Shown in pieces: positions 1,662 to 22,768 of a stretch of 22,768 bases of DNA. This DNA comes from a virus. The notes below the pieces were generated by a model, which saw nothing but the letters and a program-made list of their open reading frames with translations, made no database searches and was not told the origin of the DNA. Position numbers and translations under genes: made by a program. The stretch's first letter is position 1, and each line of letters opens with the position of its first letter. The DNA lies in the IMG/VR virus record IMGVR_UViG_3300045120_000414, positions 1 to 22,768 of that record; one strand, given 5' to 3'.

Positions 1662-1671
1662 AGTCACGCAG

Positions 1672-1700: not shown

Positions 1701-1728
1701 GTCAAGGCTGCGGATATCAGGCCTGTCG

Positions 1729-1757: not shown

Positions 1758-1765
1758 GACGGGTG

Positions 1766-7933: not shown

Positions 7934-9365
7934 TCCCGGCCCTTCGCATGGTTCGTTGCAGCACCCGGGGCCCCGCCGACCGTTGCAGCTGGTCGAGCTG
8001 CCGGCATGGCACGGATGGAAGCACCGGTCGCTGCCAGCGAGGGTGTGCCGGTGGATCGAGACCCATGTTCGGGTTCCGACCGGGTACGGGGCGGGGGAGC
8101 CGTTGCGCCTGGCCGGGTTCCAACGCCAGGTCATCGAAACCCTGTACGACTCGAGGGCGGCGGTGGTGTCACTCCCGGCCGGTAACGGGAAGACGACGCT
8201 GCTCGCCGCTATCGCGTTGGAGCGGATCTGTCGGGGCGACGATTACGTCGAGGTCGATGTTGTGGCCACCAAACAGGAACAGGCCGGGTTTCTGGTGGAG
8301 GCGGCTAAGCGGATGGTGGAGGCGTCGCCAGCGTTGGTGCCTCTGTGCGCGTTCGCGTCGGATTCGGGGACCCTGGATTACCGGGTGACCGGCTCGAGGT
8401 TGCGGGCCCATCCGGCCAAGTTGTCGTCGGTGCAGGGCCTGAACTTTTCATTGGCGGTGATCGACGAGATCGGCTTCGCGGCCGATGACGTGGTCGCTTC
8501 GTTGATCGCCCGGGTGGGTAAACGCCCGGACGCGGCGGTGATCGGGATCGGCACCCCCGGTCTCGAGCCGAACGTGATGTTCCGGATGCGGGAACGGGCC
8601 GCCGAGTTGGGCGGGATCGGGTTCCGGTATTTGGAGTGGTCGGCGCCGGCCGGCTGCGAGATCGGGGACCGGTCGGCGTGGCGGTCGGCGAACCCGGCGA
8701 TGCGGGCCGGGTTCTTGAACCCCGAGGCGATGGCCATCCAGGCCGCGTTGATGACCGAGGCGGAGTTCCGGGTGTATCACCTGGGGCAGTGGGTGACGGT
8801 GTCTGGGGGGTCGTGGTTGCCGCCCGGGGTGTGGGACGCGTGCCCGATGGTCGACGCACCCCCGGAGGGAACCGAGGTGGTGTTGGGGTTGGCGGGGACG
8901 TGGTCGAGCTCGGTGGCGGTGGTCGGGGCGACCATTGATGGGGCGTTGTTCGTGGCGTGGGCGTCGGACACGGCGACCGACGACGAGCTGGCCGCCGTGT
9001 TCCAAGCCGCCGCCGAGCAGTGGCAGGTCGTCGAGGTGGTCGTCGCCCCCCGCCAGCGAGCCAATCTGATCCCCGTGCTGGTCGACGCCGGCCTGGCGGT
9101 GGAGGTGTGGCCGAACCGGTTGGATGTGGAGGTGTCGTCGGCGACGGAGTGGCGGCGGGCGATCATGGAGGGCCGGGTCGCCCACGATCACCATCCTGTG
9201 CTGGGGAAGCATGTGACAGCGTCGGCGGCCCGGTCTACTTCCGATGGTTCTCTGCGTCTGGTCCCGCCGGATGACGGCCGCCCGGTGGATGCGGCGCGGG
9301 CGGCGCGGATGGCGTGGTGGCGGGTCACTGACCCTGACGCGGTGTCGGTCCCAGCCATCTACTGA
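7905..9365 (+). CDS. terL: Terminase large subunit (packaging ATPase; nuclease domain looks degenerate)
   Basis: This is a 486-residue packaging motor. The ATPase half is intact: Walker A PAGNGKTT (91-98), Walker B LAVIDE (183-188) and the coupling motif IGIGTPG (214-220). In the C-terminal RNase H-like nuclease half, the strand that normally reads G-D-x-S is VVLGLAGTW (Ala 330). The second acidic position reads VVVAPRQR (Ala 381). The late Asp is kept in RPVDAARAARMA (Asp 462). Loss of two of the metal-binding acidic residues suggests a weak or inactive nuclease, unless other residues substitute. Start ATG 7905 overlaps the HNH gene. The gene uses G-ending codons and TTG Leu more than the early genes, which prefer C-ending codons. 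Confidence 0.92.
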   Translation: MARPVPVPADPGPSHGSLQHPGPRRPLQLVELPAWHGWKHRSLPARVCRWIETHVRVPTGYGAGEPLRLAGFQRQVIETLYDSRAAVVSLPAGNGKTTLLAAIALERICRGDDYVEVDVVATKQEQAGFLVEAAKRMVEASPALVPLCAFASDSGTLDYRVTGSRLRAHPAKLSSVQGLNFSLAVIDEIGFAADDVVASLIARVGKRPDAAVIGIGTPGLEPNVMFRMRERAAELGGIGFRYLEWSAPAGCEIGDRSAWRSANPAMRAGFLNPEAMAIQAALMTEAEFRVYHLGQWVTVSGGSWLPPGVWDACPMVDAPPEGTEVVLGLAGTWSSSVAVVGATIDGALFVAWASDTATDDELAAVFQAAAEQWQVVEVVVAPRQRANLIPVLVDAGLAVEVWPNRLDVEVSSATEWRRAIMEGRVAHDHHPVLGKHVTASAARSTSDGSLRLVPPDDGRPVDAARAARMAWWRVTDPDAVSVPAIY

Positions 9366-9390
9366 CCGCGGTGAGTAGCATCTGGTTCCG

Positions 9391-10611
9391 GTGTCAAGTT
9401 TCGACGTCCCGGCGAACCCGAACGACCCAGCGTCGGTGCCGCCAGGCACGGTCGGCCCGCCTGCCGCCGACCCCGGCGACCCGCACGGTGTGCAGGTGCT
9501 GGGGGAGGTCGGCCAGGCGTGGATGCCCCCGCCGATCATGCCGATGCCGTGGTCGGGTTGGCCGGCGGAGTGGATGACCCCGAACTGGTTCGGTCAGGTG
9601 TCCCTGCTCACCGACACGGCCTGGGCTTGTTTGGACTCCAACGCCAGCATCCTGTCGACCATGCCCCCGTACCTGGTCGGCGCCGCCGACAGCCTGGGCG
9701 CGGATTGGTTGAACAACCCGGACCCTGATCTGTATGTGTCGTGGGAGGAGTTTGCCAAACAGGTGTTCTGGGATTTCCAGGCCGCCGGGGAAGTGTTCGT
9801 CCTGGTCACCGCCCGGTATTCGTCGGGGTGGCCGGCCCGGTTCCATGTCGTCCCCCCGTGGATGGTGATCGCCGAGCTCGGCGCCGGGGCGAGGCGGTTC
9901 TATTCGATCGGCGGGGTCGATATCACCGACGACGTGTTGCATATCCGCTACACGTCCCGGGTCGGCGACGCCCACGGCCGCGGGCCGTTGGAAGTGGCCG
10001 GCCCCAGGATGGTGGCGGCGGTGGCGTTGGCCCGCTACGCCTCCGAGCTGGCCCGCACCGGCGGTGTCCCGCATTCGGTGTTGGTGCACCCGAACCGCCT
10101 GACGGCGGAGCAGGCCGCCGCTTTGCAGCAGCAGTGGGTGACGGCGCGGATGTCGTCGATCGGGATGCCGGCGGTGCTGGCCGGAGGCGTCGATTTCAAA
10201 ACCCTCAGCTTCGATCCGGCCAAGATGGCGTTAGTGGAGTTGTCGCAGTGGAACGAGGCCCGCATCGCCGTTCTGCTCGGCGTCCCCCCGGTGTGCATGG
10301 CGTTGCCGTCGGGAGGCGACCCGATGACCTACTCGAACACCGAGAGCTTGTTCATGTACCGGTGGCGGGCCGGGCTGAAACCGTTGGCGGCGTCGGTGAT
10401 GGCCGCCCTGTCCGGCTGGGCGCTGCCGAGGGGCACGACGGTGGAGTTGAATCGTGACGAGTTCATCGCCCCGAGCCCCCTGGAGCGGGCCAAGACGGCG
10501 GAGATTTGGCACAACATCGGCGCCCAGTCCGCCGCCCAGATCGCCGAGACGGAACGCTTCGGCGACGTCGCCGCCCCATCCGAGTCCCTGTCTTCGGGGG
10601 TGATGCAATGA
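9391..10611 (+). CDS. Portal protein (HK97 family)
   Basis: GTG at 9391, 25 bp after the terminase stop, opens a 406-residue protein. The portal ring forms the DNA entry vertex and docks terminase and connector proteins. Family features are visible in order: the N-terminal TAWACLDSNASILSTMPPYL helix, WEEFAKQVFWDFQAAGEVFVLV, FHVVPPWMV, the strand pair DITDDVLHIRYTS, GRGPLEVAGPRMVAAVALARYASEL, and the FDPAKMALVELSQWNEARIAVLLGVPPVCM segment. The last is highly typical of HK97-like portals. The length is usual. A Pro-rich N-terminal 40 residues is variable. The gene couples to the protease through ATGA. Confidence 0.93.
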   Translation: MSSFDVPANPNDPASVPPGTVGPPAADPGDPHGVQVLGEVGQAWMPPPIMPMPWSGWPAEWMTPNWFGQVSLLTDTAWACLDSNASILSTMPPYLVGAADSLGADWLNNPDPDLYVSWEEFAKQVFWDFQAAGEVFVLVTARYSSGWPARFHVVPPWMVIAELGAGARRFYSIGGVDITDDVLHIRYTSRVGDAHGRGPLEVAGPRMVAAVALARYASELARTGGVPHSVLVHPNRLTAEQAAALQQQWVTARMSSIGMPAVLAGGVDFKTLSFDPAKMALVELSQWNEARIAVLLGVPPVCMALPSGGDPMTYSNTESLFMYRWRAGLKPLAASVMAALSGWALPRGTTVELNRDEFIAPSPLERAKTAEIWHNIGAQSAAQIAETERFGDVAAPSESLSSGVMQ

Positions 10612-11201
10612 GCGACGACAAACCGAGGGCGCCGATCGAGTTGCGATCGGCGACGGTGTCGGACGTCCGGTTCCCTGAACGCATCGTCGATCTGGTCGTG
10701 GTGCCTTACGACGAATGGGCGCCGGTCGAGTACCGGGGCCGGCTCGTCGAGGAGTCGTTCGCCCCGGGGGCGTTCGGGAACGTCCAGAACCGGGCGCACA
10801 AGTTCCTGGTCAACCTGGCCCATGACCGGGACCGGGTGGTGGGCCGGGTGCTGAGCTTGGACCCCGACGCATCCGAGGGGTTGCGCTCGGAGTTGCTGAT
10901 CCGCCGGGGTGTCGATGGCGACCAGGTCCTCGACGACGCGGCCGACGGGATGCTCGGCGGGTCGGTCGGGTTCGCCGCCCTGCCATCCGATCAGCAATGG
11001 GAGACACGGGACCGGCGCCGCATCGTGAAGGCGTATTTGGATCACATCGGCCTGGTGTTCACTCCGGCCTACCAGTCGGCCCAAGTGGTATCTGTCCGGT
11101 CCGCTCCCACGCCGCCGGTCGGTCCGGTCCGGGTCGCCACCCCGAACCTGGACGCCATCCTCGCCGCCCGTCTCGAAGCGGACTACTCTTCGCGGTTGTA
11201 G
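10608..11201 (+). CDS. HK97-type prohead protease
   Basis: This 197-residue serine protease (peptidase family S78-like) is coupled to the portal by ATGA. It cleaves scaffold domains of the assembled procapsid before DNA packaging. The fold begins at IELRSATVSDVRFPERIVDLVVVPYDE and RGRLVEESFAPGAF. The catalytic His is in NLAHDRDRVVGRV (His 72), the nucleophile is Ser 119 in LGGSVGF, and FTPAYQSAQVVSVR marks the C-terminal end of the domain. It is followed by the capsid gene, whose N-terminal coiled region would be its substrate. Confidence 0.93.
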   Translation: MSDDKPRAPIELRSATVSDVRFPERIVDLVVVPYDEWAPVEYRGRLVEESFAPGAFGNVQNRAHKFLVNLAHDRDRVVGRVLSLDPDASEGLRSELLIRRGVDGDQVLDDAADGMLGGSVGFAALPSDQQWETRDRRRIVKAYLDHIGLVFTPAYQSAQVVSVRSAPTPPVGPVRVATPNLDAILAARLEADYSSRL

Positions 11202-11216
11202 CGCAAACGTTCCTGC

Positions 11217-11250
11217 CAGCGGAGGAGTGACGGTCAGTGACCGGCCGCTG
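11217..11250 (+). promoter_or_regulatory. Nested stem-loop in the capsid leader
   Basis: CAGCGG (11217-11222) pairs with CCGCTG (11245-11250), enclosing the odd palindrome CGGTCAGTGACCG (11231-11243). The element lies in the 102-bp gap before the capsid gene, the second-longest uncovered stretch in a window that otherwise has almost none. It has no T run and so is not an intrinsic terminator. It may stabilise or process the capsid message. A GGAGGA and a 20-codon frame from GTG 11227 are also present, but their spacing is poor for translation. Confidence 0.4.
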
Positions 11251-11303
11251 AAACGAGGCACCGAGCCCTACGCAACTAACGACGCGTAGAGAGGTGGCCC
11301 CGA

Positions 11304-12512
11304 ATGTCGGGTGCGAATGATGCCATGCTGGCCCGGTTGCAGGGCGAGCTGACCGAACGGCGACGCTTCCAGGACCAGTTGGTGGAGGGCGCCCAGGACT
11401 CCGGACGGGACCTGACGTCCCAGGAGATGGAGCTGTTCAACCGGGCCCAGTCCCGCATGGCCGAACTCGAGTCCCAGTTGGGACCGTTGCGCGAATCGGC
11501 GCGGATCGCCCAGGAGTCGACGCAGCGGGCCGGGGAACTACAACGGGCGTTCGACGTGGCGAGGGACCCGGCCAAGGTGTCGCCGGTCGAGTACCGGTCG
11601 GCGGGCGAGTACATCATCGATTACGCCCAAGCCCAGATCGGTTCGACGTCGTCGCGGGAACGCCTGGAGTTGTTCACCCGGGCCGCCGCCCACCAGACCA
11701 GCCCCGACAACTTGGGGATCATCCCCGAGCCGATCGTCGGCCCGGTCCTGAACTTCATCGACACGTCGAGGCCGATGGTCAACGCCATCGGGGTGACCCC
11801 GATGCCGGGCGGCCGGTTCAACATCCCGTCGGTCACCCAGCACACCGACACCTCCCTACAGGCCGGTGAGAAAGCGGAGCTGGTGTCCCGCAAGATGTTG
11901 ATCACCCGGATCCCGGTGTCGATGGACACCTACGGCGGGTATGTCAACGTGTCCCGCCAGGACGTGGACTGGTCGGTTCCCCAGATCATGGACATTGTGA
12001 TCAACGACCTGGCCGGGCAGTACGCCCAGGACTGCGAATCGGCGACCGGGGTGCTGTTGAAGGCGTCGGCCACCGCCCAGACCCCGGTGCTCACCGCGGC
12101 GTCGACCGCCGCCCAGGTGTCAACCGCCATCTGGCAGGCGGTCGGGACGGCGTACGCGGCGACGCCGGGGGTCAACAACTTCCAGTTGTTCGTGTCCCCC
12201 GACATGATGGGCGTCATCGGCCCGCTGTTCCCCGGGGTCAACCCGACGAACGCCCAGTCGTCGGGGTTCTCCGCCGCGAACTACGGGTCGGGGGTCATGG
12301 GAACCATCGCCGGGGTGACCGTGGTCATGTCCTACGGGCTGGTGGCCGGCACGGTGCTGCTGCTGAACGCTCCGGCGGCCCGCTGTTACGAGCAACGCAT
12401 CGGCGCCCTGCAGGTCACCGAACCATCGGTCCTGGGCGTCCAGGTGGCGTATGCGGGGTACTTCAAACCGGTTGCCGCCCTGCCCGCCGGGATCATCAAG
12501 CTGACGGCCTGA
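11304..12512 (+). CDS. Major capsid protein (HK97 fold)
   Basis: This 402-residue protein starts at ATG 11304, with AGAGAGG about nine bases upstream. Residues 1-90 are a charged coiled coil (LARLQGELTERRRF, MAELESQLGPLRE) like the HK97 delta domain that acts as internal scaffold and is removed by the protease. The mature region contains GIIPEPIVGPVLNFIDTSRPMVNAIG, the N-arm and E-loop entry. It continues with GGRFNIPSV, KMLITRIPVSMDTYGGYVNVSRQDVDW and VINDLAGQYAQDCE, the spine helix. FQLFVSPDMMGV and GTIAGVTVVMS form the A- and P-domain strands. All are typical for HK97-fold capsids. No crosslinking Lys/Asn pair can be assigned by eye. Confidence 0.95.
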   Translation: MSGANDAMLARLQGELTERRRFQDQLVEGAQDSGRDLTSQEMELFNRAQSRMAELESQLGPLRESARIAQESTQRAGELQRAFDVARDPAKVSPVEYRSAGEYIIDYAQAQIGSTSSRERLELFTRAAAHQTSPDNLGIIPEPIVGPVLNFIDTSRPMVNAIGVTPMPGGRFNIPSVTQHTDTSLQAGEKAELVSRKMLITRIPVSMDTYGGYVNVSRQDVDWSVPQIMDIVINDLAGQYAQDCESATGVLLKASATAQTPVLTAASTAAQVSTAIWQAVGTAYAATPGVNNFQLFVSPDMMGVIGPLFPGVNPTNAQSSGFSAANYGSGVMGTIAGVTVVMSYGLVAGTVLLLNAPAARCYEQRIGALQVTEPSVLGVQVAYAGYFKPVAALPAGIIKLTA

Positions 12513-12513
12513 C

Positions 12514-12870
12514 ATGGCCGCCAAAGGCAAAGCCGCCGAATACGCCGACGACGACGACGACCCCGGGGTCGAGCCGTTGGCGGCGACGACGTGGTACGCC
12601 CCCAACCAGCAGTGCGTGCACGCCGACACGCTCGGTCCCGCCCTGATCCACTCGACGGGCGGGACCGCCGGGATCCCCGGTTCGTGGACGCCGGCCGGAT
12701 CCATGCCGCCTTCGTCGCCCGCCGATCTGCAAGGCGGCCGGCCCATCACGGTGACCGCCACCCCGGGCACCGGGTGGACAACCGGCCAGTACGTGCAGAC
12801 GGGGACGGCGGGGGCGGCCGGTCGGGCCTGTTGGACCGGTACCGGCTGGGTGGGCGGGGCGGCCCCGTAG
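12514..12870 (+). CDS. Virion-associated protein with Ig-like C-terminal module
   Basis: The ATG is one base after the capsid stop. The 118-residue product has a basic start, an acidic DDDDD stretch, and a region with Cys and His (WYAPNQQCVHAD). From residue 52 there is a module, IPGSWTPAGSMPPSS...WTTGQYVQT..G.A.W.GTGWVGG, that recurs at the C-terminus of the tail tube protein at 13960 (LPGYYTPSGATVP...NWATGQYVIT...W.GAAWAAG). Such modules in actinophage virion proteins are surface-exposed and may bind carbohydrate or cells. Position suggests a capsid decoration or head-tail protein; the exact role is unknown. Confidence 0.7.
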   Translation: MAAKGKAAEYADDDDDPGVEPLAATTWYAPNQQCVHADTLGPALIHSTGGTAGIPGSWTPAGSMPPSSPADLQGGRPITVTATPGTGWTTGQYVQTGTAGAAGRACWTGTGWVGGAAP

Positions 12871-13191
12871 ATGGCCTACGCCACCGCCGACCAGCTCGCC
12901 GAGGCGTTGCGGACCAAGGTCACGGCCGCCAACCAGCAGCTACTCGACGACTGCCTCGCCGCGGCGGCCACCGAGATCGACTCCGAGCTGACCGGCCCGG
13001 TGGCCCCCCCGGTCCCCGAGCTGGTGTCCCGCACGAACGTCAACCGGGCGGTCGAGTGGTACAAGGCCGCCGACGCGGCGTACGGGATGGTCGGCTTCGA
13101 GCAGGTCGGCGTCATCCAAGCACCGAGGGACGGGTTCAACCGTCACGCCGCCGCCCTGCTCCCCTTGAAAACATCCTGGGGGGTGGCGTGA
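12871..13191 (+). CDS. Head-tail connector/adaptor protein
   Basis: The ATG directly follows the preceding TAG; the product has 106 residues. MAYATADQLAEALR, LLDDCLAAAATEIDSELTGP and VNRAVEWYKAADAAYGMVGF match the helical plan of HK97 gp6-like or SPP1 gp15-like connectors. These form a ring under the portal and receive the tail. Order after the capsid gene and size both fit. The assignment rests on layout and helix pattern rather than a strict motif. Confidence 0.75.
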   Translation: MAYATADQLAEALRTKVTAANQQLLDDCLAAAATEIDSELTGPVAPPVPELVSRTNVNRAVEWYKAADAAYGMVGFEQVGVIQAPRDGFNRHAAALLPLKTSWGVA

Positions 13192-13562
13192 GTACCGCCC
13201 TGGTCGATCTGCGCTCCAAGGTGGCCGCCGCTCTGGCCCCCGTCGCCGACGGGGACCCGAACATGTACACGGCCCTGGTCGACGCCCTCGACCCGCCGTG
13301 TCTGATGCTCGGACCGATCGGCGGGCGGTCGTCGGGCACGTTCTGTTTGTACGAGGTCGTCGGTGTGGTCACCGCGGTGGCCGGCCGCCTGGAGGCCGGC
13401 GCCGGGCTCGACACTTTGGACGGGCTGGTCGCCTACGTGGCCGGCCGGTTCCACGGAACCGAATGGCTTGTCGAGTCGTGGCCCGAGGCGAGGGTGTTCA
13501 CCGTCGGCGGGATCAACTACCTGGCCACCCGTATCCTGTACTCGACATTGGCGACCCTCTGA
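13188..13562 (+). CDS. Head-tail joining protein, probable tail terminator or stopper
   Basis: GTG at 13188 overlaps the connector stop (GTGA), giving 124 residues. The sequence has a helical start (TALVDLRSKVAAALAPVADGD), a central strand-rich part (SGTFCLYEVVGVVTAVAGRLEAG), a helix (LDTLDGLVAYVAGRF) and closing strands (ARVFTVGGINYLATRILYSTLATL). The compact alpha/beta plan, with a surface helix near the middle, resembles tail terminators of the lambda gpU or HK97 gp11 kind. The slot between the gp6-like and gp10-like genes could instead be the stopper. Confidence 0.65.
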   Translation: MSTALVDLRSKVAAALAPVADGDPNMYTALVDALDPPCLMLGPIGGRSSGTFCLYEVVGVVTAVAGRLEAGAGLDTLDGLVAYVAGRFHGTEWLVESWPEARVFTVGGINYLATRILYSTLATL

Positions 13563-13963
13563 TGGCCGGCCCCGACGTGGAGGTCCACGGGGCCGCCGAA
13601 GCGGCCGCCGATCTCGGCCGCTTCGCCGACCAGCTCGGCCCGGCGGTCGCCAAAGCCGGGCAACCGTTCGCCCAAAAAGTCGCCGCCGCCGTCCGGTCCC
13701 GGGTCCCTCGGGTGTCGGGGGCGTTGGCCGCGTCGATCTACGCCGGGACCGACAACGACGCCGCGTTCGTGTCCGAAGGCGAAGGCCTCGACTACGGCGG
13801 GTGGATCGAATTCGGAGGCGGTCACGGCCGCCCCTACATCGACGAGGGCCGCTACCTGTACCCCACCGCCGCCGACGCCGGCGACGAGTGGGCGGCGTTC
13901 GCGTCCCAGGCGGCCGACGCCAACATCGAAAAGTTCAAATGGCATCAGGAGGCCAGCTCATGA
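13562..13963 (+). CDS. HK97 gp10-like tail completion protein
   Basis: The ATG shares bases with the preceding TGA (TGATG). The protein has 133 residues with an N-terminal helical half (AAADLGRFADQLGPAVAKAGQPFAQKVAAAVRSRVP) and SGALAASIYA. The family-typical segment is YGGWIEFGGGHGRPYIDEGRYLYPTA, followed by a C-terminal helix. HK97-gp10-like proteins are needed to finish the tail end that joins the head. The next gene begins in an ATGA overlap, with AGGAGG about nine bases before its start. Confidence 0.85.
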   Translation: MAGPDVEVHGAAEAAADLGRFADQLGPAVAKAGQPFAQKVAAAVRSRVPRVSGALAASIYAGTDNDAAFVSEGEGLDYGGWIEFGGGHGRPYIDEGRYLYPTAADAGDEWAAFASQAADANIEKFKWHQEASS

Positions 13964-14649
13964 CCATGACCGAACAAGACGCCCCAGAGCAGTTCGCGGC
14001 GGGCGACCCGGTCGCCCCGGTCGGTTTGCCGTTGGTGATGACGGATTGCTACTTCGAGCTGGGCGGCGTGAACCTGCGCTGCTTCGTGAAACATCTCGAA
14101 GCGTGCGCGGTGGACGTCAAGAAGAACACCGCGGAGACGTTCTGTGCCCGCACCGATTACCCGGGCACGGTGCGCTACACGCTCAAGGTCACGTTCTACC
14201 AGTCGTTCGATACCGGCACCGTGTTCGACACGTTGAACTCGGCGGTCACCGCGTATAAGGCGAACAGCACCCCGGTCAACTTCAAGGCCCGCCCGTTCTT
14301 CTCCCGGGTCCCCTCGGCGTCGAACCCGATCATCTCGGGGACGGTCATCCCCACTGATTTCACCTGGTTGTCGGGCGACGCCGGCGCCCTGTCCGAGGTC
14401 GATATCGAATGGGACCTGACCGGCCCGCCGACGAGGGACACCGGGGCCGTCACCGCGACGGGGGCCGTCGCCGGTCTCCCCGGCTATTACACCCCGTCGG
14501 GGGCGACGGTCCCCGCCAACCTGGCCGCCCTCACCGGGATCACCGCCTCCCCGGCGACGAACTGGGCGACCGGGCAATACGTGATCACCGCCGACCTGCT
14601 GGCCGCCAACTGGACGGGGGCGGCGTGGGCGGCCGGGAAGCACGCATGA
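13960..14649 (+). CDS. Major tail (tube) protein with Ig-like C-terminal module
   Basis: This 229-residue protein starts at ATG 13960 with a strong AGGAGG site. The core (about 22-155) shows the tail-tube strand pattern: TDCYFELGGVNLRCFVKHLEACAV, then TVRYTLKVTFYQSFDTGTVFDTLNSAVTAYKANSTPVNF and ALSEVDIEWDL. These proteins polymerise as hexameric rings around the tape measure to form the non-contractile tube. Residues 171-229 form an added module (LPGYYTPSGATVP, NWATGQYVI) that also ends the capsid-linked protein at 12514. It would project from the tube surface. Tail tubes with a C-terminal Ig-like extension are known in siphoviruses. Confidence 0.88.
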   Translation: MTMTEQDAPEQFAAGDPVAPVGLPLVMTDCYFELGGVNLRCFVKHLEACAVDVKKNTAETFCARTDYPGTVRYTLKVTFYQSFDTGTVFDTLNSAVTAYKANSTPVNFKARPFFSRVPSASNPIISGTVIPTDFTWLSGDAGALSEVDIEWDLTGPPTRDTGAVTATGAVAGLPGYYTPSGATVPANLAALTGITASPATNWATGQYVITADLLAANWTGAAWAAGKHA

Positions 14650-14972
14650 CGGTGACCGAGTCGCCCGCCGATCCGACCGTCGCCCTGCCCCTCCTGGTCC
14701 ATGTCGACCAGGCGTTCTCGCAGCGCATCATCTCCCAGCGCGCCGCCGACGCCCTGGAGAAACTCACCGGCGGGACGCCGTACAGCGAACTGATGCAAAC
14801 CCAGATGAACCGGGTCACCGCCTTCCGGGCGTTGCTGCGGGACTTCCCGTTACGCGACGAGACCTCGCTATGGGCCCACGCCTATGACGTAGAAATCGAG
14901 CTCCACACCGTGGACCCTACAAACAGCAACGGGCAGACGGCATCGCCGCTTTCTGCCGGTACTACCGCATGA
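14646..14972 (+). CDS. Tail assembly chaperone, first gene
   Basis: This 108-residue protein, coupled by ATGA, lies between the tail tube and tape measure genes, the invariant place of siphovirus tail assembly chaperones (lambda gpG-like). These bind the tape measure and recruit tube subunits. The sequence is helical (FSQRIISQRAADALEKLTG, SELMQTQMNRVTAFRALLRDF) with a polar C-terminal tail. The function is inferred from position and size. In many phages this gene is read into the next by a -1 frameshift. The downstream frame is indeed -1, but no canonical slippery heptamer is present. Confidence 0.75.
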   Translation: MTVTESPADPTVALPLLVHVDQAFSQRIISQRAADALEKLTGGTPYSELMQTQMNRVTAFRALLRDFPLRDETSLWAHAYDVEIELHTVDPTNSNGQTASPLSAGTTA

Positions 14973-15082
14973 CACCAGTCGAGATGGACGAACTCGACGA
15001 CGTCGTCTTCGCGGCCATGGTCCGGCTGATGCAACGCGAGGCGGCCGAGATCCGCCGGGCTCAACGCCGCTCGGGAAGCTAA
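14969..15082 (+). CDS. Tail assembly chaperone, second small gene candidate
   Basis: ATG at 14969 overlaps the preceding TGA (ATGA) and opens a 37-residue frame, MTPVEMDELDDVVFAAMVRLMQREAAEIRRAQ..., ending in TAA at 15080-15082. It lies in the -1 frame relative to the first chaperone gene and just before the tape measure, which is the place of lambda gpT-type extensions. The product is a short charged helix. The -1 frame is open upstream only to 14888. Expression probably depends on translational coupling. Confidence 0.6.
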   Translation: MTPVEMDELDDVVFAAMVRLMQREAAEIRRAQRRSGS

Positions 15083-15085
15083 CCG

Positions 15086-16636
15086 GTGGCCGGCCCGTCG
15101 GTCGTCGTCAAGTTCCTCGGCGACGCGTCGGGAATGAAAAAAGCCACCGACGACGCCCAGGAATCAACCAACAAGTTCGTCGACTTCGGGAAGAAAGCGG
15201 CGCTCGCGGTCGGCGGCGCGTTCGCGGTCGACAAGGTCGTCGAGTTCGGGAAGGCGTCACTCGACGCCGCCGCGGCCGACGCCCAAGCCCAACAGATCCT
15301 GGCCCAGACGATGAAGAACTCGGCGGGGGCGACCGACGCCCAGATCGCCTCGACCGAGAAATCGATCACGGCCATGTCGAAACACTCGGCCATCGCCGAC
15401 GACGTGCTCCGCCCCGCGTTGGGGAACCTGGTCCGGGCCACCGGCGACGTCACCAAATCCCAGGACCTTTTACAGATCGCCGTCGACGCCTCGGCCGCCA
15501 CCGGCAAGGACCTCGGGTCGATCACCGAGGCCATGGGCAAAGCGGCCAACGGGTCGACCGGCGGGCTGCAAAAGCTCGGCATCGCCGTCAAAGGCGCCCA
15601 CGGCGAAGCGCTCACCGCCGACCAGGTCTTCCAGAACATGGCGACCACGTTCAAGGGCCAAGCCGCGGTGGCGGCCGACAGCGCGGCGGGGAAGATGGCC
15701 AACGCCAAAATCCAGTTCGGCGAGTTCCAAGAACAGATCGGCGGTTACCTCCTGCCCGTCGTGTCGACCATGGCGACGTTCTTCACCACGACGCTGATCC
15801 CGGCCATCTCCGGGCTGTCGGACTGGGTGGCCAAAAACAAAGACATGGTGGTGGCCGCGTTCATCGGCTTCGGGGTCGTCGTCGGCGCCGTGGTCATCCC
15901 CGCCTTCATCACCTGGGCGGCCGCGGCCGGGGCCGCCGCGTTGGCCACCCTGGTGGCGGCCGCCCCGTTCATCGCTATCGGCGCGGTGATCGCCGGGGTG
16001 GCGTTCCTGATTATCAAGAACTGGGACTCGATCGTGGCCGCCACCAAAGCGGCCTGGGATTTCGTGTTCGGCGCCATCAAGTTCGTGTGGGACTGGGTTC
16101 AAGCCAACTGGCCCATCCTGCTCGGCATCCTGCTCGGCCCTATCGCCCTGGCCGCCGTCCTCATCGTCAAGAACTGGGACACCATCAAAGAGGGGGCGGC
16201 GGCGGTCTGGGATTTCATCCGTAACGGATGGAACAGCCTCATCGGGTTCTTCACCAGCATCCCCGGCCGTCTCGCCGGCATCTTCTCCGGCATGTGGGAC
16301 GGCATCTGGGAAGCGTTCAAGGGTGCCATCAACATGATCATCCGGGCGTGGAACAACTTCGAGATCAAACTCCCCGAGGTCGACACCCACATCCCCTTCG
16401 TCGGCAAGATCGGCGGGTTCGCCCTCGGTACCCCCGACATCCCGACGCTGGCCCAAGGCGGGCTCATGACCAGCTCGGGGCTGGTGTTCGCCCACGCCGG
16501 CGAGGTCATCTCCCCCGCCCCGGCCGGCTCGACGGGCCCGGCGTTGCACATCGAGAACGCCTACTTCAACGACGCCGTCGACGTCGACCTGCTGATGGCC
16601 AAAGCCGAGTTCGCGATCTCCGCCGGGCGGCTGTAA
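15086..16636 (+). CDS. Tail tape measure protein
   Basis: GTG at 15086 starts the largest protein in the window, 516 residues. It sets tail length and occupies the tube lumen until DNA ejection. The N-terminal half is coiled-coil-like (MKKATDDAQESTNKFVDFGKK, ASLDAAAADAQAQQILAQ). It contains the STGGLQKLGIAV..AHGEALTADQVFQNMA segment that is common in tape measures of Gram-positive phages. From about 230 to 370 there are several hydrophobic helices (MVVAAFIGFGVVVGAVVIPAF and others), followed by repeated KNWD/AVWDFI segments. The C-terminus has PTLAQGGLM, GLVFAHAGEVISP. Using the usual 1.5 Angstrom per residue, the tail would be near 75-80 nm. No lysozyme or peptidase domain is seen. Confidence 0.93.
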   Translation: MAGPSVVVKFLGDASGMKKATDDAQESTNKFVDFGKKAALAVGGAFAVDKVVEFGKASLDAAAADAQAQQILAQTMKNSAGATDAQIASTEKSITAMSKHSAIADDVLRPALGNLVRATGDVTKSQDLLQIAVDASAATGKDLGSITEAMGKAANGSTGGLQKLGIAVKGAHGEALTADQVFQNMATTFKGQAAVAADSAAGKMANAKIQFGEFQEQIGGYLLPVVSTMATFFTTTLIPAISGLSDWVAKNKDMVVAAFIGFGVVVGAVVIPAFITWAAAAGAAALATLVAAAPFIAIGAVIAGVAFLIIKNWDSIVAATKAAWDFVFGAIKFVWDWVQANWPILLGILLGPIALAAVLIVKNWDTIKEGAAAVWDFIRNGWNSLIGFFTSIPGRLAGIFSGMWDGIWEAFKGAINMIIRAWNNFEIKLPEVDTHIPFVGKIGGFALGTPDIPTLAQGGLMTSSGLVFAHAGEVISPAPAGSTGPALHIENAYFNDAVDVDLLMAKAEFAISAGRL

Positions 16637-17553
16637 TGGGCCACCTGTGCTCCTCGCCCGTCGCCCTGGTCCTCACGTTGGGTGCGCTCACCCTGGACCT
16701 GATGGAGGCGGGCAACGGGTTCGCCATCGACACCGTCGACATCCAGTTCCCGAACCCCAACGAGGACATATCCCCGATCCCCGAACGCGACGGCCAGTGG
16801 GACGACACCCGCTTCTTCGGGGCCAGGGCGGTCACGATCGCCGGGACGATCATCCCCGCCGCCTACGGGTCCCGTTCCAAGGTCCTCGACCGTCTCGCCC
16901 CGTTCCTGGCCCAAACCGCCCGCCCCACCCTGACCTACCAGATCGACGCCGACGCCCCCGCCCGTTTCGTCACCCTGCGGGCCACCAACCTGACCGCCCC
17001 GGCCACCAACCCCACCATCTCCGCCTTCCAGCTCGCATGGAAAGCGGCCGACCCGGCCGCCTACGGCGTCGCCCTGAACCAGGTCGTCATCGCCCCCACC
17101 GCCGCCATCTTCGGGCGGACCTACACCCACCCCCAGGGCGCGGCCATCACCAACACCTCCGGGTGGCAACCGCCCCGCGTCTACCCGCACACCTCCGGGG
17201 CGGTCAACGTGGTGGCGACCAACCAAGGCACCTTGTCCACCCCGCCGCTCATCGTCGTCAAAGGCGGTTGCACCAACCCCAAGGTGTGGAACGACACCGC
17301 CGGGGCGGTGTTCGCGGTGGGCACCACCGCCCAACCTCTGGTCCTCGCTGCCGGGTCCAGCCTGACCATCGACGCCCGTAACCGGCTCGTGTACCTGGGC
17401 AACGACCCGACCAACACCCGGTACAACTACGTCGATTTCTCGGTGTCGTCGTGGTGGTCGCTGCTGCCCGGAGACAACCATCTCCGCTTCGTGCCCGACA
17501 CCGCCGACGGGGCCGCCAACGCCACCGTGTCATGGAACGACGCCTACCTGTGA
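16636..17553 (+). CDS. Distal tail protein (Dit-like)
   Basis: The ATG overlaps the tape measure stop (TAATG); the protein has 305 residues. Distal tail proteins form the ring joining the tube to the tip. The N-terminal domain has strand patterns of that family: GFAIDTVDIQFPNPNEDISPIPERDGQWDDTRFFGARAVTIAGTI, SRSKVLDRLAPFL, and RPTLTYQIDADAPARFVTLRATNL. The C-terminal half resembles a phage tail fold ending with the NNP.TR..Y..F..SWW.LLPG.N.LR pattern. Position directly after the tape measure supports this. Confidence 0.85.
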   Translation: MGHLCSSPVALVLTLGALTLDLMEAGNGFAIDTVDIQFPNPNEDISPIPERDGQWDDTRFFGARAVTIAGTIIPAAYGSRSKVLDRLAPFLAQTARPTLTYQIDADAPARFVTLRATNLTAPATNPTISAFQLAWKAADPAAYGVALNQVVIAPTAAIFGRTYTHPQGAAITNTSGWQPPRVYPHTSGAVNVVATNQGTLSTPPLIVVKGGCTNPKVWNDTAGAVFAVGTTAQPLVLAAGSSLTIDARNRLVYLGNDPTNTRYNYVDFSVSSWWSLLPGDNHLRFVPDTADGAANATVSWNDAYL

Positions 17554-17563
17554 GGAACCCGCT

Positions 17564-18538
17564 ATGACTCTCGAGGCCCCGCTGTGGATCCAGCTCGGCA
17601 CCTTCGCCTCCCAAAACGACCGGCTCCTGATCGACACCCTGCTCGCCGCCGGCGTGTTGGACGGGCGGGCCGACCCCGTCACCGTGCTCCCCGCCTCCGG
17701 GGATCTGGCGGCCACGCCGAACGCCTCGTCCCTGGCCGTCGATGTCGCCCCCGGGGTGTGCGTGGTCACCGGGACCGACCAGACCCGCCAGGGCAAATAC
17801 GTGTGCCGCTCCACCGCCATCCAAACCGTCGCCCTGTCGCCCCGCCCGGCGGCCGGCCAGTCCCGCATCGACGTCATCTTCGCCCAGGTCCTCGACTCGT
17901 CCTCGGGGATCGTGATCACCCCGGGCACCGACGGGTGGATCATCGACAAGGTGACCGGCGTGCCGTCGGGTTCGAGCCCGGCCGTGCCCGCCGCGCCGAC
18001 CAGCTCCCTGATCCTCGCCCAGGCCCTGGTCGCCTCGACCGGCGGCGGGACCCTGCTGCCCGGCGATATCACCGACCGGCGGGTGAGGGCCTTGTCCCGC
18101 AACTCGCCGATCGCCAAGCAGTGGCGGGCGACGACCGCCCCGGCCACCGTCGACGACTTTTTCGCCCAGGCCGGGTTGCGGTCCATCCCCGGCGCCCAAA
18201 TCCCGATTGTCACCTACACCCCGAACGTGCCCGTCACCTTCCACGCCCATGTCGGGGTGGCCGCCATCGCCCTCAATCACGCGGTGGCGTTCACCGTCGA
18301 GCTGCTCCAAAACGGGGTCACCAGCGTATGGTCCGGCCCGCAGAGCGCCGCCATCGTGGTCACCTCCGCCGGTCTCACCGCCGAAGGGCACTTCACCTAC
18401 ACCTACACCATCCCGGCGCCCGGCTCATACACGGCCCGTATCGTCGGGCAGGCCTACCAATCCCAGAACGTGACCACAAAGGCGGCCGGCTCCTGGCTCA
18501 CCGCCCAGTGGTCCGATATCGCCGGTCCTACCGGTTGA
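17564..18538 (+). CDS. Minor tail protein (baseplate or tip component)
   Basis: This 324-residue protein starts at ATG 17564, with GAGGAA upstream. The N-terminal half is strand-rich and resembles actinophage minor tail proteins that begin with a QNDRLLIDTLLAAGVLDG segment and contain a central VVTGTDQTRQGKYVC / RIDVIFAQVLD region. PGTDGWIIDKVTGVPS, and LLPGDITDRRVRAL follow. The C-terminal 120 residues look like an Ig-like or carbohydrate-binding beta-sandwich (VPVTFHAHVGVAAIAL, AEGHFTYTYTIPAPGSYTARIVGQAY). It lies between the distal tail protein and hub genes, so it is probably part of the tail tip. The exact subunit cannot be named. Confidence 0.75.
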   Translation: MTLEAPLWIQLGTFASQNDRLLIDTLLAAGVLDGRADPVTVLPASGDLAATPNASSLAVDVAPGVCVVTGTDQTRQGKYVCRSTAIQTVALSPRPAAGQSRIDVIFAQVLDSSSGIVITPGTDGWIIDKVTGVPSGSSPAVPAAPTSSLILAQALVASTGGGTLLPGDITDRRVRALSRNSPIAKQWRATTAPATVDDFFAQAGLRSIPGAQIPIVTYTPNVPVTFHAHVGVAAIALNHAVAFTVELLQNGVTSVWSGPQSAAIVVTSAGLTAEGHFTYTYTIPAPGSYTARIVGQAYQSQNVTTKAAGSWLTAQWSDIAGPTG

Positions 18539-18541
18539 GCG

Positions 18542-19558
18542 GTGGTCGCCTGGCGGTGGGTCATCGGCCCGTGGAACACCCAACCCCAACGCGAGCTCAC
18601 CCTGGCCTACAACCGGCACCTGTCGTTCAATCTGACCGCCCCCGCCGCCGCCACTTTCAGCCTGCCCGGCCGGACCGACGAGGCTGCCGCCCTGACCGAA
18701 ATGTTGACCGACATGTGGGTCTACGCCGACAACACCCTCGTCTACCGGGGCCGGATCATCGCCATCACCGACACCGTCGCCCAGTCCGGGCACACCGTGG
18801 CGGTGACCTGCACCGACTACCGGGGCCTCCTGTCCCGCCGCCTGCTCGTCGAGGGCGACCAGCTCAACTGGTCGACGGCCACCTATGCCGCCATCGCCTG
18901 GGGCCTGGTGCAGTCCACCCAGGCCAAGACCGGCGGCGGGCTCGGCGTCACCCAAGGCGTGTGGCAGGCCGACACCGCCCAGCCCCCCTCCGGGTACCGG
19001 GTACGGAACTACCAGCCCGGCGCCGAGATCGCCAAAACATTGGACGACCTCGCCGCGGTGGCGTTCGACTACCAGATCGACCCGGCCCTGAAGATGAACC
19101 TGTGGGCGCCGGGCAAAACCCACACCTCCGCGTTCGTGGCCGACTACGGCGGCACCGTGATCGGATTCACCCGGGCCGCCACCGCCACCGGGTGGGCGAA
19201 CGTGGTCCGGGTCTCCGGTGACGCCACCCAGACCGTCGCCGTGAACCTGGCCACCAACCAACCCGAAGGCCGTTTCGAGCAACAGATCGGCTACCCCGAC
19301 GTCGTCCTCCAAGACACCCTGGCCCAGCGGGCCCCGACCGCCCAGACCGACTGGCTGACCCGGCGGTCGTCGCTGAACATCGACCTACGCCCCGGGATCA
19401 TCGCCCACACCGCCGACGTCGACGTCGGCTCCCAGATCACCGTCGCCCTCCGCTCCGGGCGCATCCACGAGGTCGGGACGCGCACCATCCAACAGCTCGA
19501 CGTCAACCTGGACGACACCGGCGTCACCCACACCCGCCTCGGGCTCCTCGTCGGATGA
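18542..19558 (+). CDS. Tail hub protein (Tal/gp27-like)
   Basis: GTG at 18542 opens 338 residues. The opening ATFSLPGRTDEAAAL..MLTDMWVYADNTLVYRGRIIAITD followed by HTVAVTCTDYRGLLSRRLL is the usual N-terminal beta-domain of siphovirus hub proteins of the ReqiPepy6 gp37-like group. YQPGAEIAKTLDDLAAVAFDYQIDPALKMNLW and the VRVSGDA / VDVGSQITVALRSG.IHEVGTRTIQQLDVNLDDTGVTHTRL segments complete the fold. Hub trimers plug the tube end and carry the receptor-binding parts. It overlaps the collar gene by ATGA. No extra hydrolase domain is fused. Confidence 0.85.
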   Translation: MVAWRWVIGPWNTQPQRELTLAYNRHLSFNLTAPAAATFSLPGRTDEAAALTEMLTDMWVYADNTLVYRGRIIAITDTVAQSGHTVAVTCTDYRGLLSRRLLVEGDQLNWSTATYAAIAWGLVQSTQAKTGGGLGVTQGVWQADTAQPPSGYRVRNYQPGAEIAKTLDDLAAVAFDYQIDPALKMNLWAPGKTHTSAFVADYGGTVIGFTRAATATGWANVVRVSGDATQTVAVNLATNQPEGRFEQQIGYPDVVLQDTLAQRAPTAQTDWLTRRSSLNIDLRPGIIAHTADVDVGSQITVALRSGRIHEVGTRTIQQLDVNLDDTGVTHTRLGLLVG

Positions 19559-20478
19559 CCGACCGCGGTCACACCGACCCCGCCTCCCAGTACGTCGACC
19601 GGCTCGCCGGCTACGACCAACGCCTCCAATCCCTGGAGCGGTCCCACACCCACGAACCGGAAACCCCGGTCGGGGCGATGATCGACTGGCCGGCGCCGAC
19701 CCCCCCGAACCTGTGGCACGTCGCCGACGGCGCCAGCCTGCTCGCCGCCGCCTACCCCGACCTGTTCGCGGTGATCGGCTACACCTACGGCGGGTCGGGG
19801 GCCAGTTTCAATCTGCCCGACACCCGGGGCCGGGTCGTCGTCGCCGCCGGCGCCGGCCCCGGCCTCACCGCCCGTTCGGTCGGCGCCAGGGGCGGCGCCG
19901 AAACCGTCGGGTTGACCGCCGCCCAGAACGGCACCCACGCCCATGGGATCAACTTCGCCACCGCCGCCGGATCCGGGCAGCATTCCCACCCGGGGACCAC
20001 GACCGCCGGGTCCGGGTCCCACGCCCACACCGCCACCACGACCACCGGGTCGGGGTTGCATTCCCATCCGGGGACCACCAACGGGGCGAACGCCCGCCAC
20101 CAGCACGCGGTAACCGCGGCGATGGTCCTCGGCGGCGCCCCCGGGTCGAACACGTTCGTGTTTCAGGGCGGCAACGTGCAGTCCGCCAACGACAGCCCCG
20201 ACCACGGGCACACCTTCACGACCGGGTCCGACGCCCCCGGCCACCAGCACGTCCTCACCACCGACGGCGACTCCCCGGTCCACCAACACGCCTTCACCAC
20301 CGGCGCCGATTCCCCGGTGCATCAGCACACGGTGGCCGGGTCGACCGACGGGGGCGGGGCCACCGGCGCCGCCCACGAGAACATGCCCCCCTTCGTCGCC
20401 CTGGTCAAGATCATCAAGATCCTCCCGTCGACCGCCGCCTCCCTCACCACCCTTACCATCATCGAAAGGACCCGCTGA
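19555..20478 (+). CDS. Tail collar/tip protein with HxH metal-binding ladder
   Basis: This 307-residue protein begins at an ATGA overlap. Residues 37-103 are a phage tail-collar domain (PVGAMIDWPAPTPPNLW, LFAVIGYTYGG, FNLPDTRGRV). Residues 128-258 hold nine HxH motifs at 128, 143, 156, 169, 182, 217, 230, 243 and 256, mostly exactly 13 residues apart within Gly/Ser/Thr-rich repeats; another HTH is at 31-33. In T4 gp37 and related tips, such HxH motifs bind iron within an intertwined trimer. The end, HENMPPFVALVKIIKIL, is the conserved collar-family closing segment. It is therefore probably the receptor-binding tip. Confidence 0.88.
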   Translation: MTDRGHTDPASQYVDRLAGYDQRLQSLERSHTHEPETPVGAMIDWPAPTPPNLWHVADGASLLAAAYPDLFAVIGYTYGGSGASFNLPDTRGRVVVAAGAGPGLTARSVGARGGAETVGLTAAQNGTHAHGINFATAAGSGQHSHPGTTTAGSGSHAHTATTTTGSGLHSHPGTTNGANARHQHAVTAAMVLGGAPGSNTFVFQGGNVQSANDSPDHGHTFTTGSDAPGHQHVLTTDGDSPVHQHAFTTGADSPVHQHTVAGSTDGGGATGAAHENMPPFVALVKIIKILPSTAASLTTLTIIERTR

Positions 20479-20788: not shown

Positions 20789-20911
20789 ATGGACCGCCCG
20801 CCCCGTTTCGAACGCTTCACCCGCCTGGTGATCTGGCCGCCTCCCGCCGACGAGTTCGAACCCGAGGTCGAGCCGTCCGAACCGTGGGCGTGCGACGACG
20901 AGCCGTCATGA
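20789..20911 (+). CDS. Short protein of unknown function (40 residues)
   Basis: ATG at 20789 directly follows a TAG, and the TGA overlaps the endolysin ATG at 20908. The product has an aromatic, basic first half (MDRPPRFERFTRLVIWPPP) and an acidic second half (EFEPEVEPSEP). It may only pass ribosomes to the endolysin gene. No similarity is recognised. Confidence 0.5.
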   Translation: MDRPPRFERFTRLVIWPPPADEFEPEVEPSEPWACDDEPS

Positions 20912-21678
20912 TCGAACGCGACCCGATCCCCTCGCCGAACTACTCGACCCGGCACGGCACCCCCGTGCGCCTGATCGTGCTCCACACCGCCGAGGGCGCC
21001 CTCACCTACCAGGCGTTGGGGAACTACTTCGCCGACCCGGCTTCGGGGGTGTCGTCGCACGCCGGGATCGATGACACCCCCGGCCGCATCGGCATCTACG
21101 TGCCCCGGGGCGACAAGGCGTGGACACAGGGCAACGCCAACCCGTACAGCCTGGCCGCCGAGCTGTGCGCCTTCGCCGCCTGGTCGGAGGCGGAATGGTG
21201 GTTGCATCCGCAGATGTTGGAGAACTGCGCGGCGTGGGTGGCCGAGGAGGCCGCCGCGTTCGGCATCCCCCTCGTCGCCCTCACCCCGACCGAGGCGCAG
21301 TCCGGGGCCTCGGGGGTGTGCCAGCACGCCGACCTCGGCGCCGCGGGTGGGGGACACTGGGACTGCGGGCCCGGGTTCCCTATGGCCTGGATCATCGACG
21401 CCGCCCGGGACGGGGCGGAGACAGGAGGCGGCGCGGTGGAGATTTGCGCGACACCGTCAGGCAAGGGGTACTGGGTGTGCGGGTCCGATGGGGGGGTGTT
21501 CACCTACGGCGACGCCGAGTTCCACGGCTCCCTGGGCGACGTCGACCTCGAGGCCCCGATTGTCGGGATGGCCCCCACCCCGACCGGCCGGGGCTACTGG
21601 CTCCTCGGCCAGGACGGGGGCGTGTTCACCTTCGGCGACGCCCCGTTCTACGGGGCACCCACCGGGGTAGTCAAGTAA
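20908..21678 (+). CDS. Endolysin: N-acetylmuramoyl-L-alanine amidase with wall-associated repeats
   Basis: This 256-residue lytic enzyme, coupled by ATGA, cuts the amide bond between N-acetylmuramic acid and the stem peptide. The amidase_2/PGRP domain covers roughly residues 15-165. Zinc ligands are probably His 26 in LHTAEG, His 140 in CQHAD and Cys or Asp in HWDCGPGFP (152-153). The C-terminus has two copies of a repeat, [19 protein letters not shown] (187-205) and [19 protein letters not shown] (229-247), probably for wall binding. I associate this repeat mostly with Acidimicrobiia surface proteins. There is no signal peptide, so a holin is needed; one is encoded next. Confidence 0.92.
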
Positions 21679-21680
21679 CC

Positions 21681-21857
21681 ATGATGCTCGCCGCCTACCT
21701 GGCCACCAAACCGACCGGCGGGCCGCTCACCTGCCTCATCGTCGCCCTGGTCCTCTTCGTCGTCGCCGGCGCCGCCGCCGCCTTCTACAAAGCGTTCTGG
21801 GGCTGCGTGATCTGCGCCGGGCTCGCCTTCCTCACCCTCGCCTTCCTCGTGAGCTAG
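21681..21857 (+). CDS. Holin candidate with two transmembrane helices
   Basis: This 58-residue protein starts at ATG 21681 (a second ATG follows), three bases after the endolysin gene. Two hydrophobic segments, [18 protein letters not shown] (about 18-35) and [16 protein letters not shown] (about 42-57), are joined by a short YKAFWG turn, a class II or III holin layout. Holins make the membrane lesions that release endolysins. The role is inferred from size, membrane helices and position. The membrane-anchored collagen-like protein downstream could be a second membrane component. Confidence 0.65.
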
Positions 21858-21868: not shown

Positions 21869-22522
21869 GTGAGCGACGGGGCGATCATCGCGGCTGTGCT
21901 CACCGGCGTCGCCGCCATCATCACCGCCTGGGCGGCTGTTGTCCGGGCCAAAAAGCAGGGCGCGGCCGCCTGCGAGGATGAGTTGAGATCGGCCCGGGCG
22001 GAAGGGGAAGCCGCCCGGGCCGAACTGCACCGCCTCCGCATGGAAAACGGGGAGATCGGCTCCGGGTTCCTGTTCGCCGCCGCCGCCGTCCTCGTCGCCG
22101 CCGCCGTCACCTTCGCCATCATCGCCGGGACCGACACCGCCACCGGACCCCCCGGCCCCCCAGGTGTCACCGGCCCGCCAGGCTCGGCCGGCGCCCAAGG
22201 CCCCCCAGGTGTTGCAGGTGCGCAGGGTCCGCCGGGGGCGGGGATCGTCGGACCGGCCGGCGACCCGGGCGCCACCGGATCATCAGGCGAACCCGGTTCC
22301 CCCGGAGCGGCCGGCAAACCCGGCCAGGCGGGCGAGGCGGGCACACCGGGCGCCCCCGGCGCGGCGGGCGCCCAAGGCGTCGAGGGGCGGCAAGGACCGG
22401 AAGGGCCGCCCGGGTTGGCGTGCCCGGTCGGGTTCTCCCAGAAAATCGTGTCGGTGAAATCGGCCAACGGGGCGAACGTCCCCCTGTCGGTGTGCGCCCC
22501 CCTCACCTTCCCGCCCGGCTAA
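21869..22522 (+). CDS. Membrane-anchored collagen-like protein
   Basis: GTG at 21869 opens a 217-residue protein. A first hydrophobic helix (about 5-25) is followed by a charged coiled-coil-like stretch (28-60, [26 protein letters not shown]) and a second hydrophobic helix (66-87). From residue 93 there are about thirty Gly-X-Y triplets with one imperfect one (GPP-GA-GIV). The 33-residue cap has Cys 185 and 209. I infer two membrane spans with the collagen stalk outside or in the wall, and trimer formation. The N-terminal part alone resembles a two-helix holin or antiholin. The C-terminal repeats and cap differ from the copy at 1-363. It is convergent with an integrase, a usual place for lysogenic-conversion genes. 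Function unknown. Confidence 0.8.
22145..22251. repeat. 107-bp exact direct repeat, right copy
   Basis: Identical to bases 1-107, in the same reading frame of the collagen-like gene. The distance between the copies is 22,144 bp, which would be the unit length if the genome is circular. Downstream similarity decays through the Gly-X-Y repeats to the shared 13-bp junction CCGGCTAACCGGT (356-368 and 22515-22527). Confidence 0.95.
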
Positions 22523-22768
22523 CCGGTCTCCATAGCGGAACGCATCACGTCAAGGTCCGGGGTACGCAGATACCGTTCCGTGGTCGCCAACGAGACGTGA
22601 CCGAGCGCGCCCTGCACGGTGCGCACGTTGCCGCACCGGTCCAACATGTTCGAGGCCATGGTGTGGCGCAGCGCGTGGGCGGATACCCCGTCGTAGGCGC
22701 TGGCCTTCAACCCGGCCAGGTCCATCCACCGTGACACCAGCTTGGAGATACGCCCGGCGGACAGCCCG
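22519..22768 (-). CDS. Second tyrosine recombinase, C-terminal part (start outside window)
   Basis: The minus-strand frame is open to the window edge and ends with TAG at 22521-22519, overlapping the TAA of the collagen-like gene. The visible 82 or so residues contain the end of a tyrosine recombinase catalytic domain: [13 protein letters not shown] (HxxR), [13 protein letters not shown] with His and the nucleophile Tyr. [19 protein letters not shown] lies upstream. It differs in sequence from the integrase at 360-1235 outside these motifs, but it sits at the same convergent junction. It is probably an alternative integrase, either of a related phage or of a neighbouring prophage. Confidence 0.88.

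What the first reader, a model, noticed from the sequence alone, without database searches (positions are those of the whole stretch)
22145..22768. Two alternative collagen-tail/integrase modules at one shared junction
Bases 1-107 equal 22145-22251. From there both copies encode homologous Gly-X-Y repeats with different caps, and both meet a tyrosine recombinase tail-to-tail at the same CTAA inside CCGGCTAACCGGT (356-368, 22515-22527). The two recombinases are clearly different proteins. This looks like cassette exchange in which the repetitive collagen DNA supplies homology, so that integration specificity and the collagen tip are swapped together. Possible explanations are: a circular genome of about 22.1 kb with two variants in the population; tandem prophages; or one phage integrated in the collagen gene of another, with the repeat as attL/attR. 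The first seems simplest because the window begins inside the repeat.
Basis: partly seen in the sequence, partly recalled or inferred. Interest (0 to 1): 0.82.

Follow-up and report, generated by a model that had tools for sequence, protein, structure and literature searches.

The report
Phage integrase swap beside collagen gene
The two ends of this contig are best read as two coexisting versions of one spot in a small circular soil-phage genome, where a collagen-like gene meets the phage's integrase; it is a clear case of ordinary phage module shuffling, and a relative shows that the collagen tip and the integrase can be exchanged independently.

Summary
Bases 1-107 equal 22145-22251. Both copies continue as homologous Gly-X-Y genes and meet a tyrosine integrase tail-to-tail at overlapping stops inside CCGGCTAACCGGT. 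The record is a metagenomic viral contig, so its ends are assembly ends. The closest capsid relative (G006) closes into a 22,184-bp circle with similar gene order, so the window is best read as one full turn of a 22,144-bp temperate-phage genome plus 624 bases, ending in a second population variant. Relative G001 corrects the main interpretation: it carries the A-type cap with the B-type integrase. Cap and integrase therefore reassort, with breakpoints near the end of the collagen repeat (about base 222-231) and at the shared stop overlap. IntA's last 21 nt resemble IntB ends (16/21; 75 other integrases reach at most 13), probably a replacement scar. The collagen protein has two predicted membrane segments and lies in the lysis cassette, so it is probably not a tail tip. 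IntA and IntB groups have different candidate attP cores inside the repressor gene upstream of int, and relatives' repressors end in ssrA-like tags, as in integration-dependent immunity. This is a known kind of module exchange. Reads are needed to prove that both variants share one core.

The parts
1..107 (.). Exact direct repeat, left copy, starting at the contig's first base and at the first Gly-X-Y codon
22145..22251 (.). Exact direct repeat, right copy
1..363 (+). Collagen-like gene, copy A: Gly-X-Y repeats plus cap [28 protein letters not shown] (5' part cut by the contig end)
21869..22522 (+). Collagen-like gene, copy B, complete: two predicted membrane segments separated by a charged stretch, then Gly-X-Y repeats and cap [33 protein letters not shown]
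222..231 (.). Best-supported recombination breakpoint in copy A (B-like on the left, G001-like on the right)
356..368 (.). CCGGCTAACCGGT junction: collagen TAA (361-363) overlaps IntA TAG (360-362)
22515..22527 (.). CCGGCTAACCGGT junction: collagen TAA (22520-22522) overlaps IntB TAG (22519-22521)
360..380 (-). Putative scar: last 21 nt of IntA (SALGTG*), 16/21 identical to IntB-type 3' ends (SAMETG*/AAMETG*)
360..1235 (-). IntA, full-length tyrosine integrase (possible start at 1250)
22519..22768 (-). IntB, C-terminal 82 aa of a different tyrosine integrase (84% identical to the integrase of G001)
1254..1862 (-). Helix-turn-helix repressor-like gene directly upstream of IntA (start uncertain, likely internal)
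1292..1313 (-). [quoted passage not shown]
2352..3335 (+). RecT-like ssDNA-annealing protein, a possible driver of recombination between diverged sequences
3742..4167 (+). Endonuclease / Holliday-junction-resolvase-like protein
7905..20478 (+). Single set of structural genes: terminase large subunit, portal, capsid, candidate tape measure (15086-16636, named by size and position), tail collar
20875..21678 (+). Endolysin (Amidase_2 with [13 protein letters not shown] repeats)
21681..21857 (+). Small hydrophobic protein, holin-like by position only

Best explanation
The contig is one complete turn (22,144 bp) of a circular or circularly permuted genome of a small temperate phage, probably of an actinobacterium. 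It overlaps itself by 107 bp and stops because the sampled population carries two versions of the boundary between the late (lysis) operon and the opposing integration/immunity operon. Version A is cap A | IntA; version B is cap B | IntB. The boundary is a seam where modules from related phages have been joined by recombination: one breakpoint near the end of the diverged Gly-X-Y repeat, another within the last ~20 nt of the integrase gene, where the two stop codons overlap. A phage-encoded RecT-like annealing protein is a plausible driver. Caps and integrases can reassort independently. Because candidate attP cores lie within the repressor gene just upstream of int, an exchange of integrase probably carries the repressor tail and attP with it, changing where the phage integrates. 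Shown from sequence: the two versions, the three-way mosaic, the seam, the gene order, the closed circle of a relative. Inferred: that both versions belong to the same core genome, RecT as driver, altered attB, and the membrane and lysis role of the collagen protein.
For: The exact repeat begins at base 1 of a metagenomic contig and its second copy starts 624 nt before the other end. G006 (capsid 77%) closes on itself with an exact 127-bp end overlap into 22,184 bp with a similar gene order. IntB-type (G001, L006, L009, L091) and IntA-type (L123-L125) integrases both occupy this position, 3' end facing the lysis genes. Three-way mosaic: collagen N-part A=B (93-100% nt, G001 61-64%); cap region A=G001 (83-87% nt) with B at 57-71% to A; integrase B=G001 (84% aa), A only 28-34%; breakpoint p about 5e-5. 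IntA 3' end 16/21 identical to IntB ends against at most 13/21 in 75 other integrases, and the close IntA relatives L123 and L124 end about 16 aa earlier. A 142-bp tract is 99.3% identical between the window and G001 where the other aligned blocks are about 66-82%, showing recent short-tract exchange between these lineages. RecT-like gene present.
Against: No reads were available, so the joins 22144->1 and 22251->B are not verified on single molecules. 107 is not the 127-nt overlap seen in G006, so the contig start could be a coverage end rather than a graph node. The B version's upstream region (attP, repressor) is not on the contig, so that B joins the same early genes is unseen. IMG/VR classes the record as linear. 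The cap was found in only one other IMG/VR contig, so the reassortment rests on three sequences.
Confidence: 0.8

Rival explanations
1. Assembly chimera: the core phage carries only version A, and the last ~500 bases (B) belong to a different phage that shares the conserved collagen stretch; the assembler crossed over at the shared 107 or more bases.
For: The shared exact stretch is in the range of assembler k-mers and starts at the contig end. De Bruijn assemblers cannot phase variants across conserved stretches longer than k (PMC11443906).
Against: B matches this phage group: IntB is 84% identical to the integrase of G001, and window 21421-22768 aligns as one 73% block with G001, lysis genes included. 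Two versions in one sample would still be real.
Confidence: 0.12
2. Tandem or adjacent prophages: two related phages integrated side by side, the contig running through one and into the next.
For: The linear layout A-core-B is literally what such an array would show.
Against: Only one set of structural genes is present. The candidate attP cores lie inside the repressor gene on the 5' side of int, so a prophage would be interrupted there and not at the collagen/int boundary. G006 closes as a single circle.
Confidence: 0.05
3. One phage integrated into the collagen gene of another, with the 107-bp repeat as attL/attR.
For: A direct repeat flanks a phage-sized unit.
Against: The similarity does not stop at 107 bp but decays through homologous coding DNA (88% over 294 nt) to the stop codon, unlike an att core. 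The same collagen-int order exists in G001 with one integrase.
Confidence: 0.02
4. Programmed variation: cap and integrase alternate by a dedicated switch, such as an invertase or a cassette system.
For: Two versions appear in one assembly, and both integrases have Xer-like tyrosine recombinase matches.
Against: No inverted copies of the module and no silent cassettes are in the window. The versions differ by ordinary divergence and recombine with separate breakpoints.
Confidence: 0.01

Closest known systems
Modular mosaicism of temperate phages by homeologous recombination (lambda Red; Martinsohn et al. 2008, PMC2327257)
   Same: Breakpoints in diverged homologous genes and at gene ends; a RecT-like annealing protein is encoded; recent short-tract exchange with a relative.
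   Different: One homology patch is a collagen-type repeat. Not tested experimentally here.
Integration-cassette diversity in closely related actinophages (cluster K mycobacteriophages, PMC5721135)
   Same: Related cores carry different integrases and different predicted attachment sites.
   Different: Uncultured small soil phages; the seam lies directly against a collagen-like gene with overlapping stops.
Integration-dependent immunity (BPs and relatives, PMC4557955; Gordonia phages, PMC5559632)
   Same: Repressor and int transcribed in the same direction; candidate attP core within the repressor ORF; ssrA-like repressor C-termini in relatives.
   Different: The window's own repressor ends ALARSA, not a clear tag; attB not found; no functional test.
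Phage collagen-like repeats as recombination hotspots (discussed in PMC7242381)
   Same: Recombination in or beside Gly-X-Y repeats changes the distal part of the protein.
   Different: The protein here has predicted membrane segments and is in a lysis cassette, not an evident tail fibre.

Membership tests
Circular (or circularly permuted) temperate phage genome | Contig end overlaps itself, with one copy of each core gene | tested here: inconclusive
   107-bp exact self-overlap, but not at both termini; one set of structural genes; a relative closes at 22,184 bp
Temperate phage | Integrase and repressor genes present | tested here: met
   Integrase matches Pfam and PHROGs strongly; repressor match is weak but consistent
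Mosaic exchange by recombination | Neighbouring segments have conflicting closest relatives with a definable breakpoint | tested here: met
   G001 carries the A-type cap with a B-type integrase
Integration-dependent immunity (BPs type) | attP inside the repressor ORF, int directly downstream in the same direction | tested here: inconclusive
   Candidate core AGAAGTAGATGCTTCT at 1292-1313; 9 of 76 IntA-search loci have it within 4 mismatches upstream of int, shuffles average 6.8. A second core, CCATCTACCAAATGG, is exact in three IntB-type phages (G001, L006, G004) and has one mismatch in L091. Position and orientation fit; crossover at these sites is not shown
Integration-dependent immunity (BPs type) | C-terminal ssrA-like tag on the viral form of the repressor | tested here: inconclusive
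   11 of 13 repressors of the family end in [AVLIM]A[AS] against 7 of 275 background proteins, but the pattern was chosen after inspection and the window's own repressor ends ALARSA
Integration-dependent immunity (BPs type) | Matching attB in a host; only the truncated repressor is active | not testable with these tools
   No exact full-core hit in 296 genomes of one phylum; host unknown
Tail fibre / collagen tail tip | Virion tail protein | tested here: inconclusive
   Collagen repeats match tail-fibre PHROGs, but the N-terminus has two predicted membrane segments and lies after the endolysin; its N-domain has no match in the phage collection

The most novel reading that the evidence does not exclude
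In this family of small soil phages the integrase is a routinely exchanged cartridge bounded by two seams: the attP core inside the repressor gene on one side and the overlapping stop codons with the collagen or lysis gene on the other. Natural variants L124/L125 switch sharply within 8 bp of the attP core. A membrane-anchored collagen-like protein is varied separately at its tip through recombination in its own repeat.
Probability: 0.3. Interest if true: 0.5.

Novelty: new member of a known kind. Interest (0 to 1): 0.36.

Why it matters
It is a fine-scale natural record of how temperate phages trade integration modules: three combinations of cap and integrase, a probable scar left in the incoming integrase gene, and in relatives a breakpoint at the candidate attP core. 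It also shows that the two ends of a viral contig can be two alleles of one place, which matters for calling genomes complete, and it points to an uncultured group of ~22-kb phages that may use integration-dependent immunity.

Tried and rejected
Own-genome search gave only this record. A DNA pattern across the collagen start found no other IMG/VR contig. No tRNA genes in the window. The cap alignment found only G001 in IMG/VR. Genome scan with the capsid gave five distant relatives on bacterial contigs and no host for this phage. The collagen N-domain has no match in 50,697 phage records. attP cores were not found in bacterial genomes (IntA core in 5 genomes with one mismatch allowed; both cores exact in 296 genomes), so attB is unknown. 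I considered the 13-mer CCGGCTAACCGGT as an att core and rejected it: CTAACCGGT is the end of the integrase coding sequence plus its stop, and the flanking collagen codons differ in G001. I considered k=107 as the assembler word size; this could not be checked.

Full report
What the window is. The 22,768-base window is a complete IMG/VR record classed as linear. It encodes one set of phage structural genes (terminase, portal, capsid, a candidate tape measure, collar), an endolysin, a small hydrophobic protein, a collagen-like gene, an integrase with a helix-turn-helix repressor, and an early region with a RecT-like annealing protein and a resolvase-like nuclease. Its ends are therefore contig ends, and both lie in the same pair of genes.

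Check of the observation. Every stated fact is correct. The exact repeat is 107 nt, the alignment continues at 88% to base 294, and the differences fall mostly at third codon positions. Both collagen copies end in TAA overlapping the TAG of a leftward integrase within CCGGCTAACCGGT. IntA and IntB are both tyrosine recombinases but share only 28-34%. The two caps are homologous at 55%.

Why the ends look alike. Relatives found through the capsid and the integrase show the same gene order, with an integrase facing the lysis genes and a repressor behind it. In G001 and others a B-type integrase stands exactly where IntA stands in the window, with a collagen gene in front of it in G001; in L123-L125 an A-type integrase does. 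G006, the closest capsid relative, has an exact 127-bp end-to-end overlap and so closes at 22,184 bp. It has an integrase of another type and no collagen gene, but the same order of modules. The window read as a circle is 22,144 bp. The simplest account is one full turn of a circular genome that ends in a second allele of the collagen/integrase boundary. I could not see reads, so the joins 22144->1 and 22251->B remain inferred.

Cap and integrase are not obligatorily swapped together. Codon alignment of copy A, copy B and G001 shows three different patterns in three adjacent segments. In the first part of the Gly-X-Y region A equals B and G001 is distant. In the last part and the cap A is close to G001 (24 of 28 aa in the cap) and B is distant. 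In the integrase B is close to G001 (84%) and A is unrelated in detail. The best breakpoint between the first two segments lies at A positions 222-231, near the end of the Gly-X-Y repeats, with 57:5 and 37:8 informative sites on either side (the permutation treats sites as independent). The second breakpoint is at the stop overlap CTAACCGGT, which G001 shares with both copies. The observed combinations are capA-IntA, capB-IntB and capA-IntB.

A probable scar. The last 21 nt of IntA (SALGTG*) match IntB-type ends in 16 of 21 positions; the best of 75 other integrases of the IntA search reaches 13, and the closest IntA relatives L123 and L124 end about 16 residues earlier. This suggests that IntA replaced an IntB-type gene with a breakpoint in its last six or seven codons, and it would explain why the two junctions share their letters. 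The support is moderate (about 1 in 76 empirically).

The integration side. [quoted passage not shown] In the window the core is at 1292-1313. Two contigs from different metagenomes, L124 and L125, are 99.8% identical over 4,923 bases from that core through int and the lysis genes, and their repressor bodies differ from 8 bp upstream of it (further upstream they become similar again, so a local exchange or an indel is possible). Eleven of 13 repressors of the family end in ssrA-like residues, against 7 of 275 background proteins (pattern chosen after inspection). [quoted passage not shown] The window's own repressor has no clear tag, and no attB was found, so membership is likely but not proven.

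What the collagen protein may be. Copy B has hydrophobic segments at about residues 1-27 and 61-92, before the repeats, and follows the endolysin and a small hydrophobic protein. Relatives G004, L006 and L008 have other small membrane-type proteins in that place. Similar N-domains followed by longer collagen repeats occur behind endolysins in other soil phages such as L015 and L018. A membrane-anchored product of the lysis cassette is more likely than a tail tip. Its function is not known; display of a collagen-like stalk outside the membrane at lysis or in the lysogen is my guess.

Mechanism and verdict. Recombination between related phages, perhaps helped by a RecT-like protein (homeologous exchange at 22% divergence is known for lambda Red, PMC2327257), explains all features. 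A 142-bp tract 99.3% identical to G001, where other aligned blocks are about 66-82%, shows that such exchange is recent. The finding is real and instructive, but it is module exchange of a known kind.

Noticed in passing
window 6762-6902: 142-bp tract 99.3% identical to G001 (L101:169-310) where other aligned blocks of the two genomes are 66-82% identical, covering a tiny gene (6720-6890) and the start of the next; a paralogous copy (72%) lies at 5002-5130.
   Followed up: partly
L124:3696-8627 and L125:3186-8117: Two contigs from different metagenomes are 99.8% identical from the candidate attP core through int and lysis genes, while the repressor body diverges from 8 bp upstream of the core.
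   Followed up: partly
L132, L134, L154 upstream of int: The IntA-type core appears in the opposite orientation (such as GAAGCATCTACTTCTGA) upstream of related integrases.
   Followed up: no
window 5973-6452: Early gene matching a PHROG labelled cysteine dioxygenase (E 6e-44), an unusual gene for a 22-kb phage.
   Followed up: no
L103/L104 (G006): Exact 127-bp terminal repeat, so the record is a closed 22,184-bp genome.
   Followed up: yes
L015:8001-8744, L017:554-1294, L018:5120-5872: Collagen-like genes with a related membrane N-domain behind endolysins in other soil phages.
   Followed up: partly
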